NCBI RefSeq assembly: GCF_006494775.1
Contig: NZ_CP041146.1
Coordinates: forward strand, 1,860,001 to 1,924,000
DNA: 64,000 nucleotides
Origin: Nocardioides humi
GTDB taxonomy: Bacteria; Actinomycetota; Actinomycetes; Propionibacteriales; Nocardioidaceae
Direction: 5' to 3'
The notes beneath the pieces are model-generated. The model was not told where the DNA came from. It did not search any database and worked only from the letters and a program-made list of their open reading frames with translations. The translations under genes and the position numbers were made by a program. Below, in pieces: positions 32,036 through 46,045 of this stretch (position 1 is the stretch's first letter; each line of letters begins with the position of its first letter).

Positions 32036-33232
32036 CTACCGCCGGTCCGCGGGATCGGGCTGGAGTGAGCGGGAAGTGCCGTGGCGCATCAGTTGCGCCC
32101 GATATGGCGCGAGCAGGCTCTTTCCCGCTGCCAGCGAGCTCGCGCCGACCAGCTCGGATCTGCGACGGAACTCCACGATCAGACCGCCCCCGTCGGGTCG
32201 CACGACACCGGAGGTCTCGGCGACACCCGGACATCCGATCATCTCGAGCTTGTGGTCGAACTGGTGGGACCAGACGTACGGGACGCTCACCAGCGGCGTT
32301 CCCCGGCCCAGCAGCGTCGCCGCGGCCGCAGTTCCCTGCTCGATGGCGTTGGTCCAGTGCTCCACGCGCATCGAGACGTTGAAGCGCTGGTTGTACAGCC
32401 GCGCGACGTCGCCGGCGGCGACGACTCCCTCGAGGCCGAAGACCGAGCAGTCCGGACGGCACAGGACCCCGTCACGGGTGGCCGCCGGAATGCCGTTGAG
32501 CCACCCGAGGTCGAGTGTGGCTCCGGTCGACCAGATGACCAGATCGGCCTCGATGGTGCCTGAGCGAGAGAGTCTCACGGCGGCCACGCGGCCGCCCACC
32601 AGCTCGATGTCGTCCACCGTCTCCGCAAGTCGGACATCAACGCCGTGCGCGCGATGCAGGTCGGCGACCGCCCCGGACATGGCGGCACCGTGCCGGGCGC
32701 CGAGGAGAGCCGGGCCGGCCTCCACCACGGTCACAGGCTTGCCCTGATGGCGCACGGAGGCGGCGGCCTCCAGACCCAGGAAGCCGCCTCCGACCACGAC
32801 GACCGCGGCGGCCAGCGCGACCTCGTCGGCCAGAGCGGTGGCATCGGCGAGGGTGCGGACAACGTGGACGCCGGCATCCGCGGCGTAGGTCGGGTGGCGT
32901 CGGGCCTCACTCCCGGAGGCGATCACCAGCCCGTCGAACGGAAGCTGCAGCGACGCGCGATCGACCTCGACGCCCAGCCGCCGCCGGTGCAGGTCCACCG
33001 CCGTCGCGGCGCCGTGCCAGCGCTCAGCGCCGAGATCGGCAGGCCACTCGATGGCGATGTCCTCCGGCCGTATGCGGCCGGACAGGATCCCCTTGCTCAG
33101 CTCGGGCTTGCGATAGGGCGCGACCGGATCGCGGTCGAGGACGGTGATCTGACCGTCGAAGCCCTTGGCACGCAGAGCGCGCACCGCGCTGAGTCCGGCG
33201 ATCGAGCCACCGACGACGATGACGTTCTTCAT
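32036..33232 (-). CDS. NAD(P)H-dependent ferredoxin reductase (FAD, rhodocoxin/putidaredoxin reductase type)
   Basis: This 398-residue FAD protein has two dinucleotide-binding motifs: VVVGGSIAGLSA at the N-terminus and VVVVGGGFLGLEAA near 145. It also has the APYRKPELSKG segment and the late GVVAAGDVARLYN motif of oxygenase-coupled ferredoxin reductases. It passes electrons from NAD(P)H to the ferredoxin encoded just upstream, which overlaps it by 4 bases, and hence to the P450. Its C-terminus (CPGVAETSGVVRPDGG) is standard. The operon order is P450, ferredoxin, reductase, folE. Confidence 0.9.
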   Translation of the reverse strand: MKNVIVVGGSIAGLSAVRALRAKGFDGQITVLDRDPVAPYRKPELSKGILSGRIRPEDIAIEWPADLGAERWHGAATAVDLHRRRLGVEVDRASLQLPFDGLVIASGSEARRHPTYAADAGVHVVRTLADATALADEVALAAAVVVVGGGFLGLEAAASVRHQGKPVTVVEAGPALLGARHGAAMSGAVADLHRAHGVDVRLAETVDDIELVGGRVAAVRLSRSGTIEADLVIWSTGATLDLGWLNGIPAATRDGVLCRPDCSVFGLEGVVAAGDVARLYNQRFNVSMRVEHWTNAIEQGTAAAATLLGRGTPLVSVPYVWSHQFDHKLEMIGCPGVAETSGVVRPDGGGLIVEFRRRSELVGASSLAAGKSLLAPYRAQLMRHGTSRSLQPDPADRR

Positions 33233-33444
33233 GCCGTATCGGTCGCGGTGAGCTCGATGGCCATCACCGGACAGACGTCGACCGCCATCTGGACGGCGCC
33301 GAGCTCCTCGGGCACGACCTCCTCGCGCAGCTGGACCACGAGACCGGTCGCGGCGTCCTGCGCGAAGTGGCCGGGGGCGACGTCCACGCAGTTGCCGGCC
33401 CCGATACAGCGGTCGGGAACGACGGTGATGCGCGTGCTGGTCAT
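33229..33444 (-). CDS. Ferredoxin, 3Fe-4S type
   Basis: This 71-residue ferredoxin has the cysteine pattern of 3Fe-4S or loosely 4Fe-4S P450 partners: Cys13 and Cys19 (DRCIGAGNC) and Cys58 followed by Pro (VDVCPVMAI). Where a fourth ligand would be (position 16) there is Ala. It is acidic, as expected for an electron carrier. The ATG at 33444 is preceded by GGAGCATCCC, and the stop overlaps the reductase start (ATGA). It carries electrons to the P450, whose gene ends 40 bases upstream. Confidence 0.92.
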   Translation of the reverse strand: MTSTRITVVPDRCIGAGNCVDVAPGHFAQDAATGLVVQLREEVVPEELGAVQMAVDVCPVMAIELTATDTA

Positions 33445-33484
33445 GGGATGCTCCAGATCGGTCGTGGTGGTGTGCGGGCGTGGC

Positions 33485-44825: not shown

Positions 44826-45270
44826 CGGCCCCGCCCCTCTCCACCAGCGTCGAGCGGGCCGTCACCACGAGGTCGCCCCTCGCCCCGTGGAGGTCCGTGC
44901 GCGTGGTCAGGAAGGTCATGGCGCCCTTGTGGACGACCGACTCCAGCGTGACGGTGGCCGCCAGCTCGTCTCCCGCCACGATCGGGCGGGCGAGGTCGAA
45001 GCGCTGCTCGCCATGCACGACGCGGGCGTAGTCGAGACCGATCGCCGGGTCGTGGGTCACCTGCCGGCTGGCTCGCCGGGTGACGACGATCGCGAAGGTC
45101 GGCGGTGCGACCAGGTCGACGTGGCCGAGCGCCCGCGCGGCCTCGACGTCGAAGCAGGCCGGGTGGGTGATGCCGACCACGTCGGCGAACTCACGGATCA
45201 GGTGGCGGGTCACGGTGTAGGGCTCGGTCGGCGGGTAGGTCCGGCCGGCGTGCCGCTGGTCGACAGGCAT
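44812..45270 (-). CDS. MaoC N-terminal (FAS1-DH-like) hydratase subunit, HadA-like
   Basis: The 152-residue protein (RTYPPTEPYTVTRHLIREFADVVG, quoted in part, and VAPPTFAIVVTRRA) matches the FAS1-like dehydratase N-terminal hot-dog, which binds the acyl chain but has no catalytic Asp-His pair. It overlaps the catalytic MaoC gene by 14 bases. Mycobacterial HadA and HadB pair in this way, and steroid hydratases are similar. Function of the pair: hydration of an enoyl-CoA intermediate. Confidence 0.85.
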   Translation of the reverse strand: MPVDQRHAGRTYPPTEPYTVTRHLIREFADVVGITHPACFDVEAARALGHVDLVAPPTFAIVVTRRASRQVTHDPAIGLDYARVVHGEQRFDLARPIVAGDELAATVTLESVVHKGAMTFLTTRTDLHGARGDLVVTARSTLVERGGADERS

Positions 45271-45283
45271 GACAGGAGCGGCC

Positions 45284-46045
45284 TCAGTGATTCCAGTTGG
45301 CCTGGGTCGCCAGCCCCTGCAACGCCAGGCCGTAGCTGACGCCGTCGTGGAGAAGGCGCTTGTACTCGCGCGTGAGCACCTCGCGCGCGTAGCGGCGCGT
45401 GAGGAACGGCTTCTCGGCGAAGTCGCGCGCGATCTCCCGTGCCCGGGGCAGCACGTCCTCGGGCGCCAGCACCTCGCTCACCACTCCGTAGTCCAGCGCC
45501 TGTCGCGCGTCGAACTCCTGCCCCATGAGGAGGTAGTAGCGCCCTCGGTTGGGTCCGAGGAGGTGGGTCCACACGACGTGGGCGCCGTCGCCGGGCACGA
45601 CGCCCTTCTGGAAGTGGCCCTTGTCGGAGAAGACCGCGGTCTCCGACGCCAGGACGATGTCGGACATCGCCGGGATCTCGGAGTGGAAGCGCACCGGTCC
45701 GTTGATCGCGGAGATGACGGGCACGTTGATCTTCAAGAGGTTGTTGAGCAGCCGGGATCCCTCGTGCAGGATCACCTCCCAGGTCGCCGGCGTGGTGACC
45801 GAGAAGGACGCGAAGTCCAGCTCGTTGCAGAACGAGTCTCCGGCGCCGGTGAGGATGACCACCTTGTTCTCGCTGTCGGCGGCGATGTCCTCCCACAGAT
45901 AGGGAAGGGCGTCGTGGATGGCCTGGGTCCACACCATCGAGTCGCCGTCCGTGTGCAGCGTGACCTCCAAGATGCCGTCGGTTCGCTCGAGCCGCGCGTT
46001 GGCGTACCTGTGCTGATAGTCGCTGAATGTAGGCGCGAGAGACAC
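45284..46045 (-). CDS. 6-Oxocamphor hydrolase-like crotonase (beta-diketone C-C hydrolase)
   Basis: This protein of about 253 residues is a crotonase, but its active site follows 6-oxocamphor hydrolase (OCH) of Rhodococcus, which cleaves cyclic 1,3-diketones by water (retro-Claisen). From the GTG start, Trp39 (MVWT), His121 (RFHSEIP), His144 (GHFQKG) and Asp153 (VPGDGAH) match OCH Trp40, His122, His145 and Asp154 as I recall them, with constant spacing. OCH Glu244 appears as Gln243. SRLLNNLLKINVPVI and MSDIVLASET also fit. GTG 46045 has AAGGAG upstream; the ATG at 46087 has none. It heads the operon to 40456. Identity rests on memory, not alignment. Confidence 0.8.
   Translation of the reverse strand: MSLAPTFSDYQHRYANARLERTDGILEVTLHTDGDSMVWTQAIHDALPYLWEDIAADSENKVVILTGAGDSFCNELDFASFSVTTPATWEVILHEGSRLLNNLLKINVPVISAINGPVRFHSEIPAMSDIVLASETAVFSDKGHFQKGVVPGDGAHVVWTHLLGPNRGRYYLLMGQEFDARQALDYGVVSEVLAPEDVLPRAREIARDFAEKPFLTRRYAREVLTREYKRLLHDGVSYGLALQGLATQANWNH

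What the first reader, a model, noticed from the sequence alone, without database searches (positions are those of the whole stretch)
32036..46045. Putative P450-dehydrogenase-OCH route for an alicyclic or terpenoid ketone
A complete three-component P450, two adjacent Zn dehydrogenases and a 6-oxocamphor-hydrolase-like crotonase together recall the Rhodococcus camphor route: hydroxylate, oxidise to a 1,3-dione, cleave by retro-Claisen hydrolysis, then activate and beta-oxidise. Downstream CoA ligase, MaoC pair and thiolases supply the later steps. The catalytic Trp, His, His and Asp spacing of OCH is reproduced exactly as I recall it. This is my leading candidate for an undescribed catabolic system.
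Basis: partly seen in the sequence, partly recalled or inferred. Interest (0 to 1): 0.8.

Follow-up and report, generated by a model that had tools for sequence, protein, structure and literature searches.

The report
OCH-type diketone hydrolase in catabolic island
An actinobacterium carries a carbon-carbon bond-cutting enzyme closely related to the one that opens camphor's ring in Rhodococcus, but placed at the head of a different and apparently uncharacterised gene cluster that probably breaks down some other ring-shaped, terpene-like compound.

Summary
45284-46045 encodes a member of the 6-oxocamphor hydrolase (OCH) family: 62% identical to OCH, ungapped, with Trp40, His45, His122, His145 and Asp154 kept (Glu244 is Gln); its predicted fold matches OCH at 0.8 A. 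It falls in a clade separate from the characterised OCH. OCH heads a tight six-gene operon (OCH, MaoC pair, ferredoxin reductase, thiolase-fold protein, CoA ligase). The 'thiolase' is an Ltp2-type retro-aldolase candidate (44% to steroid aldolase Ltp2, both catalytic Tyr kept). The operon belongs to a cluster of about 31 genes, shared with one Amycolatopsis contig, that runs about 16 kb past the window. It includes a diiron-monooxygenase candidate (PtmU3/DitZ type), a ThDP enzyme, an acyl-CoA dehydrogenase pair, a DUF35 protein and its own P450 and ferredoxin. OCH clusters nearest the characterised enzyme carry a different P450, aldolase, dehydrogenase and hydratase, so camphor is unlikely. 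Best guess: retro-Claisen plus retro-aldol breakdown of another alicyclic, probably terpenoid, ketone. New variant of a known kind.

The parts
45284..46045 (-). OCH-family beta-diketone (retro-Claisen) hydrolase, 253 aa, first gene of a six-gene operon
   Evidence: 1o8u E 9.5e-101, 62% identity ungapped; W40/H45/H122/H145/D154 kept, E244 is Gln; AF2 model pLDDT 93.5, rmsd 0.7-0.8 A to 1o8u/1szo; 25-row clade separate from the rows with characterised OCH
44812..45270 (-). MaoC-like hydratase subunit (FAS1_DH_region), 152 aa
   Evidence: PF13452 2.1e-31; 13 bp from OCH; no match in the sister contig at E 1e-3
44427..44825 (-). MaoC hydratase subunit, 132 aa
   Evidence: PF01575 1.9e-18; overlaps its neighbours; only a 29% match over 75 aa in the sister contig
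43274..44434 (-). Second ferredoxin reductase (FdR2), in the OCH operon
   Evidence: PF07992 6e-49; 52% to sister contig
42104..43267 (-). Ltp2-type thiolase-fold protein, candidate retro-aldolase
   Evidence: 6ok1 (T. curvata Ltp2) E 4e-87, 44% identity, motif YDAF and the Tyr344 equivalent kept; 73% to sister contig
39900..42080 (-). Acyl-CoA ligase LigA; its domains end near 40480 and the frame then runs on without a stop, antisense to a SnoaL gene
   Evidence: AMP-binding 2.2e-75 over residues 26-394, C-terminal domain to 522; 53% to a 548-aa ligase in the sister contig
39987..40439 (+). SnoaL-like protein
   Evidence: PF12680 8.7e-10; 74% to sister contig
46097..47383 (+). Thiolase (PRK07851 type), divergent to OCH; the divergent pair is kept in the sister contig
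   Evidence: NF005890 672 bits, above its cut-off 580; 62% to sister contig
47403..48080 (-). GntR/FCD-type regulator (upper end approximate; last third of ORF 47403-49445)
   Evidence: GntR 9.9e-14, FCD 1.8e-15; 59% to sister contig over 210 aa
49630..50826 (+). Branched-chain-amino-acid-type substrate-binding protein
   Evidence: PF13458 1.9e-47; 57% to sister contig
51005..52384 (+). Amidohydrolase-fold protein of the PtmU3/DitZ kind, candidate dinuclear-metal monooxygenase (ARO)
   Evidence: 8uyr DitZ E 1.4e-66, 6omp PtmU3 2e-36; DxH, H, E, D..H metal ligands aligned to PtmU3 by eye (ligand lists from passages); 75% to sister contig
52482..53468 (+). Zn-type dehydrogenase
   Evidence: 60% to sister contig
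53538..55157 (+). ThDP-dependent enzyme TPP2
   Evidence: three TPP domains; nearest solved BbmA 2e-37, cyclohexane-1,2-dione hydrolase lower down at 1.7e-29; 64% to sister contig
55258..58719 (-). Branched-chain-type ABC transporter (ATPases and permeases)
   Evidence: PF00005, PF02653; 53-70% to sister contig
58765..59841 (+). Zn-dependent dehydrogenase
   Evidence: 75% to sister contig
59917..60831 (-). PF04199 'cyclase' family protein
   Evidence: 5.2e-22; 69% to sister contig
60860..61291 (-). DUF35 / OB_ChsH2_C protein, candidate partner of the aldolase
   Evidence: PF01796 place in the own-genome search, frame; 53% to sister contig
61288..63407 (-). Acyl-CoA dehydrogenase pair (61288-62418, 62415-63407)
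   Evidence: Pfam; 60% and 44% to sister contig
63556..64000 (+). SDR-like start of a gene (label by eye) that runs past the window end; the cluster continues to about 80 kb in window numbering (thiolase, SDR, LLM-type enzyme, ferredoxin 68018, thiolase-like + DUF35, ADH, ACAD, P450 78718)
38213..39859 (-). ThDP enzyme TPP1, with Dabb 37893-38198
   Evidence: best match in the sister contig is the TPP2 orthologue, 44.5%
35650..37888 (-). Two Zn-dehydrogenases ADH1 and ADH2, same operon-like group as TPP1
   Evidence: best 27-28% in the sister contig
32036..34687 (-). P450 (33485-34687), ferredoxin (33229-33444), FdR1 (32036-33232): three-component system, separate group
   Evidence: 40/41/35% in the sister contig

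Best explanation
OCH (45284-46045) is a CoA-independent retro-Claisen hydrolase that opens a cyclic 1,3-dione (His145/Asp154-assisted attack of water, Trp40 holding the other carbonyl, by analogy to OCH; mechanism recalled). It belongs to an accessory, mosaic catabolic supercluster for an alicyclic, probably terpenoid, ketone other than camphor. Proposed order: (1) uptake (ABC transporter, MFS); (2) oxygenation by a P450, most likely the conserved one at 78718 with ferredoxin 68018 and reductase FdR2, and oxidation by a Zn-ADH to the 1,3-dione; (3) OCH opens the ring to a keto acid; (4) LigA makes the CoA thioester; (5) a beta-hydroxyl is put on the ring carbon, either by the acyl-CoA dehydrogenase pair plus the MaoC pair or directly by the PtmU3-type monooxygenase; (6) the Ltp2-type protein with DUF35 cleaves by retro-aldol, releasing a short acyl-CoA and a new ketone; (7) thiolases finish. 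Shown here: gene content, family membership, catalytic-residue conservation, operon layout and conservation with one sister cluster. Inferred: all substrates, the order of steps, the terpenoid class.
For: OCH membership. Operon with gaps of -14 to +23 bp from OCH through LigA. Ltp2: and passages on Tyr294/Tyr344 in PMC12329534. OCH is at 70%, with a second OCH paralogue at 68%. Another type of OCH cluster also pairs OCH with a thiolase-fold gene of the aldolase kind plus DUF35: 12 of 16 loci L005-L020 against 1 of 64 loci L021-L084. Terpenoid hint: PtmU3 acts on diterpenoid-CoA (passages).
Against: Only two clusters of this type were seen, so conservation rests on n = 2. The MaoC pair is missing from the sister contig, so the hydratase step may be wrong or supplied elsewhere. 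The YDHF motif of Ltp2 is YDAF here. No DUF35 lies in the OCH operon; the nearest is about 15 kb from OCH and 18 kb from the aldolase gene. OCH Glu244, whose ABDH equivalent is listed as catalytic (passage), is Gln here. No substrate was tested, and the ThDP, ADH and cyclase genes fit no step of this scheme firmly.
Confidence: 0.6

Rival explanations
1. One reading: P450 33485 with its ferredoxin and FdR1 hydroxylates a camphor- or cineole-like ketone, ADH1/ADH2 oxidise it to a 1,3-dione, OCH cleaves it, and LigA, MaoC and thiolase finish.
For: The genes named lie within about 15 kb, nearly all on one strand, and the P450 system is complete. The ligase ORF as it stands ends only 40 bp from TPP1, so the OCH operon and the TPP1/ADH block could be joined.
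Against: Opposite-strand genes, one of them conserved, lie between the groups; the block has no orthologue in the sister cluster, which shares another P450 and ferredoxin; OCH clusters nearer to the characterised OCH use a different P450 (26-29% to the window P450 in the 7 of 16 loci L005-L020 where it matched) and SDRs.
Confidence: 0.2
2. OCH acts on a beta-diketone that is not part of terpenoid catabolism, for example an acylphloroglucinol, a triketone, a curcuminoid or a cyclohexanedione from an aromatic pathway; the cluster degrades an aromatic or polyketide compound.
For: Wider OCH relatives occur in many contexts, e.g. beside a cyclase and molybdenum-hydroxylase genes in Pseudonocardia and lactonases in Deinococcus; a ThDP enzyme and a PF04199 protein are conserved here.
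Against: Within the OCH superclade proper, the contexts seen are mostly CoA/aldolase-type clusters, many with a P450; no ring-hydroxylating or ring-cleaving dioxygenase came up among the cluster ORFs that I gave to Pfam, which were not every ORF.
Confidence: 0.2
3. The supercluster degrades a polycyclic substrate such as a diterpenoid or steroid-like compound, and OCH acts late, on a ring remnant (overlaps with the best explanation).
For: Steroid-like parts: Ltp2-type aldolase (44%), DUF35, two-subunit acyl-CoA dehydrogenase, a ligase whose best NCBIfam score is the FadD3 family though below its cut-off; the PtmU3-type protein.
Against: I recognised no steroid ring-degradation gene among the ORFs scanned; the larger ACAD subunit scores best with pimeloyl-CoA dehydrogenase, below cut-off (the smaller subunit was not scanned there).
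Confidence: 0.3
4. OCH here is an ordinary enoyl-CoA hydratase with a chance resemblance.
For: Pfam and NCBIfam scores are to ECH_1 and enoyl-CoA hydratase families.
Against: None of the 25 NCBIfam families shown (of 62) reaches its cut-off; 6 of 6 control crotonases lack Trp40, His45 and His122; Foldseek ranks OCH and ABDH chains 1-12, and chains named enoyl-CoA hydratase only from rank 13 at rmsd 2.1 A. The first of those, 3q1t, is itself argued to be a beta-diketone hydrolase in a passage of PMC3584854.
Confidence: 0.03

Closest known systems
6-oxocamphor hydrolase (OCH), Rhodococcus, PDB 1o8u/1szo
   Same: 62% identity, ungapped, model rmsd 0.7-0.8 A, five of six named residues kept
   Different: Separate 25-row clade beside the OCH rows; Gln for Glu244 (17 of the 23 clade rows listed; 4 of 187 other rows, two of which are duplicate copies of the sister-contig proteins and two unplaced); different gene neighbourhood
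Anabaena beta-diketone hydrolase ABDH, PDB 2j5g/2j5s
   Same: 45-46% identity and rmsd 1.1-1.6 A in Foldseek
   Different: Phe in place of Trp40; lies outside the OCH superclade
OCH clusters of Rhodococcus sp. 008 plasmid pR8L1, Nocardioides sp. Root1257, Frankia, Pseudonocardia and sphingomonads
   Same: OCH near ligase, hydratase and a thiolase-fold gene with DUF35, in whole or part
   Different: P450 26-29% to the window's where it matched, aldolase candidate 28%, a single MaoC and one ACAD, SDRs in place of Zn-ADHs
Ltp2 steroid side-chain aldolase with ChsH2-DUF35 (PDB 6ok1)
   Same: 44% identity; Tyr294 and Tyr344 kept; DUF35 genes in the same cluster
   Different: YDHF is YDAF; DUF35 is stand-alone and about 18 kb from the aldolase gene; the operon's MaoC proteins lack DUF35
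PtmU3 / DitZ / AibH2 amidohydrolase-related dinuclear oxygenases
   Same: Metal ligands aligned by eye; Asp in place of PtmU3 Glu313, as in LynB7 and AibH2
   Different: No Rieske gene came up among the neighbouring ORFs scanned; substrate unknown; the source and role of DitZ were not found

Membership tests
OCH / crotonase-fold beta-diketone hydrolases | Sequence and fold nearest to OCH/ABDH rather than to enoyl-CoA hydratases | tested here: met
OCH / crotonase-fold beta-diketone hydrolases | Trp40, His45, His122, His145, Asp154 | tested here: met
   6 of 6 control crotonases lack Trp40, His45 and His122 (one has His145, one Asp154)
OCH / crotonase-fold beta-diketone hydrolases | Glu244 (E243 of ABDH listed as catalytic) | tested here: not met
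   Gln here and in 17 of 23 listed rows of its clade, Glu in the other 6. The position varies inside the superclade, so it lowers the claim of an identical mechanism more than family membership
OCH / crotonase-fold beta-diketone hydrolases | CoA-independent hydrolysis of a 1,3-dione | not testable with these tools
   needs an assay
Rhodococcus-type camphor (6-oxocamphor) pathway | P450 orthologous to the one linked to OCH in near relatives | tested here: not met
   26-29% where matched, against 58-64% between those loci and Rhodococcus 008
Rhodococcus-type camphor (6-oxocamphor) pathway | Linked ACAD, MaoC, aldolase candidate, DUF35 and SDR of those clusters | tested here: not met
   aldolase 28%, other types of the rest. 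That those clusters are the camphor pathway is itself an inference; the neighbourhood of the 1o8u gene was not seen
Ltp2-type retro-aldolases | Tyr base of YDHF and Tyr344 acid | tested here: met
   roles from PMC12329534 passages
Ltp2-type retro-aldolases | His of YDHF (oxyanion hole) | tested here: not met
   Ala; replacing the His cost TcLtp2 14-fold (passage)
Ltp2-type retro-aldolases | Complex with a DUF35 protein | tested here: inconclusive
   DUF35 gene present at 60860-61291 and conserved, not adjacent
Amidohydrolase-related dinuclear oxygenases (PtmU3 kind) | Six metal ligands | tested here: met
   read by eye from the HMMER alignment to PtmU3 against ligand lists
Amidohydrolase-related dinuclear oxygenases (PtmU3 kind) | O2-dependent hydroxylation | not testable with these tools
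   needs an assay

The most novel reading that the evidence does not exclude
The cluster runs an oxygenase, retro-aldol and retro-Claisen relay: the PtmU3-type monooxygenase hydroxylates the beta carbon of a ring-borne acyl-CoA without prior desaturation, the Ltp2-type aldolase splits off a short acyl-CoA and leaves a ring ketone that is itself a cyclic 1,3-dione, and OCH (two paralogues in the sister cluster) opens it. The same logic would hold for the Rhodococcus-type clusters with a hydratase in place of the oxygenase: from 6-oxocamphor it predicts 4,4,5-trimethylcyclopentane-1,3-dione as a second dione intermediate.
Probability: 0.2. Interest if true: 0.75.

Novelty: new variant of a known kind. 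Interest (0 to 1): 0.45.

Why it matters
OCH is one of few enzymes known to cut a C-C bond of a 1,3-dione without a cofactor (recalled). I found no description of the gene context of its pathway, or of the steps after ring opening, in the listings of the searches made here (open-access library only). The finding exposes a separate clade of OCH with a cluster of about 31 shared genes, and shows OCH genes joined with two different thiolase-fold aldolase candidates. That gives a testable rule for what follows the retro-Claisen step, and new enzymes for desymmetrising diones.

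Tried and rejected
Camphor as substrate: rejected as first choice because the OCH clusters closest to 1o8u share neither P450 nor aldolase with the window. The neighbourhood of the 1o8u gene itself was not seen; its nearest relative in the tree is a Nocardia protein, P0100, at 84%.

Thiolase reading of 42104-43267: rejected in favour of the Ltp2 type.

Further members of the window's cluster: aldolase at E <= 1e-120 in 1 of 390 genomes of the family of Pseudonocardia CNS-139 and 0 of 401 of the family of Mycobacterium pinniadriaticum, drawn from a larger group; OCH at E <= 1e-85 in 0 of 399 of the order of Comamonas koreensis, drawn from a larger group. 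The tool warns for that an empty answer shows nothing. A Mycolicibacterium rhodesiae JS60 aldolase at 74% could not be seen in context. TPP1 at E <= 1e-130 is in 3 of 325 class genomes including its own; the two others have no match to ADH1, ADH2, Dabb or P450 of the window at E 1e-8 within the 20 kb taken from each.

Plasmid records: no place at 60% identity or more for OCH, aldolase or P450. Literature on DitZ: nothing relevant in the listings. CurH paper (PMC11407993) not held; that CurH, a curcuminoid beta-diketone hydrolase, resembles thiolases is recalled.

Weak points of my own scripts: the ferredoxin and GntR queries were cut in the wrong frame and carry stops, so their absence there means nothing. 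Labels are best BLAST hits to Rhodococcus 008 and window proteins, not independent annotation. The tree is a quick search with SH-aLRT only; it leaves the order of the three groups inside the OCH superclade open, so I do not call the window's clade sister to either. In one search, 85 of the 120 P rows were not in the tree, and L120 and L125 repeat two clade members among the 'others'.

Full report
What is there. On the minus strand, in the order of transcription, they are: OCH-like crotonase 45284-46045; MaoC-type 44812-45270 and 44427-44825; a second ferredoxin reductase 43274-44434; a thiolase-fold protein 42104-43267; a CoA ligase from 42080; then ThDP enzyme 38213-39859, Dabb 37893-38198 and two Zn-dehydrogenases 36788-37888 and 35650-36777; then, after a 962-bp gap that holds most of a plus-strand amidohydrolase, P450 33485-34687, ferredoxin 33229-33444 and reductase 32036-33232. 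The ligase's domains end near 40480, which leaves 620 bp before the ThDP gene, filled by a plus-strand SnoaL gene; its ORF as it stands runs on to 39900. Gaps inside each group are between -14 and +40 bp. I read this as three operon-like groups, with OCH heading the first.

The OCH-like protein. Its best solved relative is 6-oxocamphor hydrolase, E 9.5e-101, without a gap over 244 residues, 62.3% identical. Trp40, His45, His122, His145 and Asp154 are all kept, Glu244 is Gln. In 210 family rows besides the reference, the window's among them, positions 122, 145 and 154 are His, His and Asp in 210 of 210, position 45 is His in 208 and position 40 Trp in 187 (Phe in 23). Six ordinary crotonases taken as controls lack Trp40, His45 and His122, 6 of 6; one of them has His145 and one Asp154. 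An AlphaFold2 model (mean pLDDT 93.5) matches OCH chains first, TM 0.96-0.97 by query length, rmsd 0.7-0.8 A; chains named enoyl-CoA hydratase follow from rank 13, rmsd 2.1 A, and the first of them, 3q1t, is argued in PMC3584854 to be a beta-diketone hydrolase itself (passage). That OCH's mechanism uses these residues is recalled from the OCH structure papers, which I did not see; for ABDH, D153, H144, E243 and H43 are named as catalytic in a passage of PMC3584854.

Where it stands in the family. A tree of 127 rows puts it in a clade of 25 rows (SH-aLRT 100). With a group of 24 rows that holds characterised OCH (94) and a group of 13 proteobacterial rows (83) it forms a 62-row superclade (99); the order of the three is left open. 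The clade holds the window, an 88% protein from a short contig, two paralogues from Amycolatopsis sp. K13G38 (70% and 68%) and proteins of mostly unnamed sources. I know of no characterised enzyme in it. Gln at position 244 is found in 17 of its 23 rows listed and in 4 of 187 other rows, of which two repeat the K13G38 proteins and two were not placed in the tree. The gene is accessory: of 58 genomes, 36 of them other members of the genus, only the window's own has a match at E <= 1e-50; in 394 genomes drawn from the class, 9 including its own reach 1e-70.

Two kinds of OCH cluster. (i) A cluster annotated on Rhodococcus sp. 008 plasmid pR8L1 has OCH with AMP-ligase, acyl-CoA dehydrogenase, MaoC, thiolase-fold protein, zinc-ribbon DUF35, enoyl-CoA hydratases, SDR, P450 and ferredoxin (Pfam agrees for five of these). 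The set recurs, in whole or part, around OCH in Nocardioides, Frankia, Pseudonocardia, Streptomyces, sphingomonads and others. Its thiolase-fold protein is found at 64% or more in 12 of the 16 loci nearest the OCH query (L005-L020; the misses are L013, L014, L015 and L019, three of them on contigs under 7 kb) and in 1 of the 64 remaining loci (L030; 10 of the 64 are under 10 kb). The P450 is found at 58-64% in 7 of the same 16. (ii) The window is different: its P450 matches those 7 loci at only 26-29%, its aldolase candidate is 28% to the Rhodococcus one, and it has a MaoC pair, Zn-ADHs and ThDP enzymes.

The retro-aldolase. The operon's thiolase-fold protein is nearest to Ltp2 of Thermomonospora curvata (6ok1, E 4e-87; 44%). 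In Ltp2 the base is Tyr294 of YDHF and the acid Tyr344; the His helps bind the enolate, and its loss costs 14-fold (PMC12329534, passages). The window has YDAF and keeps the second Tyr. Ltp2 works with a DUF35 domain; the genome has 12 PF01796 places, the nearest at window 60911-61105 and about 69.6 kb. The aldolase candidate of cluster type (i) is only 28% identical and has YDSY, so OCH has been joined with two different thiolase-fold candidates. Retro-aldolase function is inferred in both.

The supercluster. A search for the aldolase found G617, whose contig of 124,592 bp equals that given for the Amycolatopsis sp. K13G38 proteins. Comparing 111 kb of the window's genome (window, 15 kb before, 32 kb after; 595 ORFs) with that contig gave 60 reciprocal-best ORF pairs under my filters, 50 of them between 39.9 and 80.2 kb. 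Many are antisense shadows; I read 29 of the 50 as genes by eye, and add a GntR and a DUF35. Shared genes include LigA 53%, aldolase 73%, FdR2 52%, OCH 70%, the divergent thiolase 62%, SnoaL 74%, binding protein 57%, ABC transporter 53-70%, amidohydrolase-fold protein 75%, ADHs 60 and 75%, ThDP enzyme TPP2 64%, cyclase 69%, ACAD pair 60 and 44%, and beyond the window a thiolase 74%, SDR 64%, LLM-type enzyme 63%, ferredoxin 53%, ADH 75%, ACAD 80% and P450 72%. Not conserved: ADH1, ADH2, Dabb, TPP1 as such, the MaoC pair, P450 33485 (40%), FdR1 (35%). In 2-kb steps G+C is 0.68-0.74 up to 46 kb and 0.65-0.70 after, compatible with a mosaic island.

A second oxygenase. The protein at 51005-52384 is nearest to DitZ and PtmU3. 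PtmU3 hydroxylates C-5 of diterpenoid-CoA intermediates with a dinuclear iron site in a TIM barrel (PMC10127204 and PMC7782822, passages); such enzymes are called amidohydrolase-related dinuclear oxygenases (PMC10811679, passages). The ligands named there align by eye in the window protein, and PtmU3 Glu313 is Asp, as in LynB7 and AibH2. It is therefore a monooxygenase candidate rather than a plain hydrolase. I found nothing on DitZ.

How it most likely works. OCH opens a cyclic 1,3-dione; LigA activates the acid; a beta-hydroxyl is made either by acyl-CoA dehydrogenase and hydratase or by the PtmU3-type enzyme; the Ltp2-type enzyme cuts by retro-aldol; thiolases finish. The absence of the MaoC pair from the sister contig speaks for the oxygenase variant or for a hydratase elsewhere. 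If the Rhodococcus-type cluster handles camphor, structural reasoning on recalled camphor chemistry predicts that dehydrogenation, hydration and retro-aldol of the ring-opened keto acid give 4,4,5-trimethylcyclopentane-1,3-dione, again a 1,3-dione. This is a prediction, not a result.

Verdict. The proposed three-step route and the camphor analogy are not supported by conservation, nor probably by operon layout. It is a new variant of a known kind: an unstudied OCH clade within a shared, apparently uncharacterised catabolic cluster. Literature checks: '6-oxocamphor hydrolase' gave 1 paper, on another subject by its title and abstract start; 'campholinic' 0; oxocamphor with Rhodococcus 0; camphor/Rhodococcus/retro-Claisen 152 papers, of which the 20 listed show none on such clusters by title and abstract start; the wider term list 26 papers, none on such clusters likewise. 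The library is open-access only, so absence there is weak evidence.

Noticed in passing
window 31431-32032: A GTP cyclohydrolase I-like gene is split between two minus-strand frames (N part in ORF 31589-32032 by Pfam, C part in ORF 31431-32462 by eye), so it looks frame-shifted; the C part has no match in the sister contig.
   Followed up: partly
window 39900-40480: The CoA ligase frame lacks a stop at the expected C-terminal end and runs antisense through a conserved SnoaL gene; lost stop or frame error.
   Followed up: partly
L005-L020, L085, L107-L111: A recurring OCH cluster (P450, ferredoxin, SDR, ligase, ACAD, MaoC, aldolase-like, DUF35, ECH) spans actinobacteria and proteobacteria; a candidate for the lower camphor-type pathway.
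   Followed up: partly
window 51005-52384: PtmU3/DitZ-type amidohydrolase-fold monooxygenase candidate inside a catabolic cluster.
   Followed up: partly
window 59917-60831 and L113 14165-14941: A PF04199 cyclase sits in the window's supercluster, and an annotated cyclase lies directly beside an OCH-family gene on a Pseudonocardia plasmid.
   Followed up: no
window 28441-29196 and about 29.2-29.6 kb: TatC (Pfam) with a TatA/B-like stretch next to it (by eye).
   Followed up: no
window 27708-28244: The ORF looked to me like part of an intradiol-dioxygenase-type protein; Pfam found no family.
   Followed up: partly
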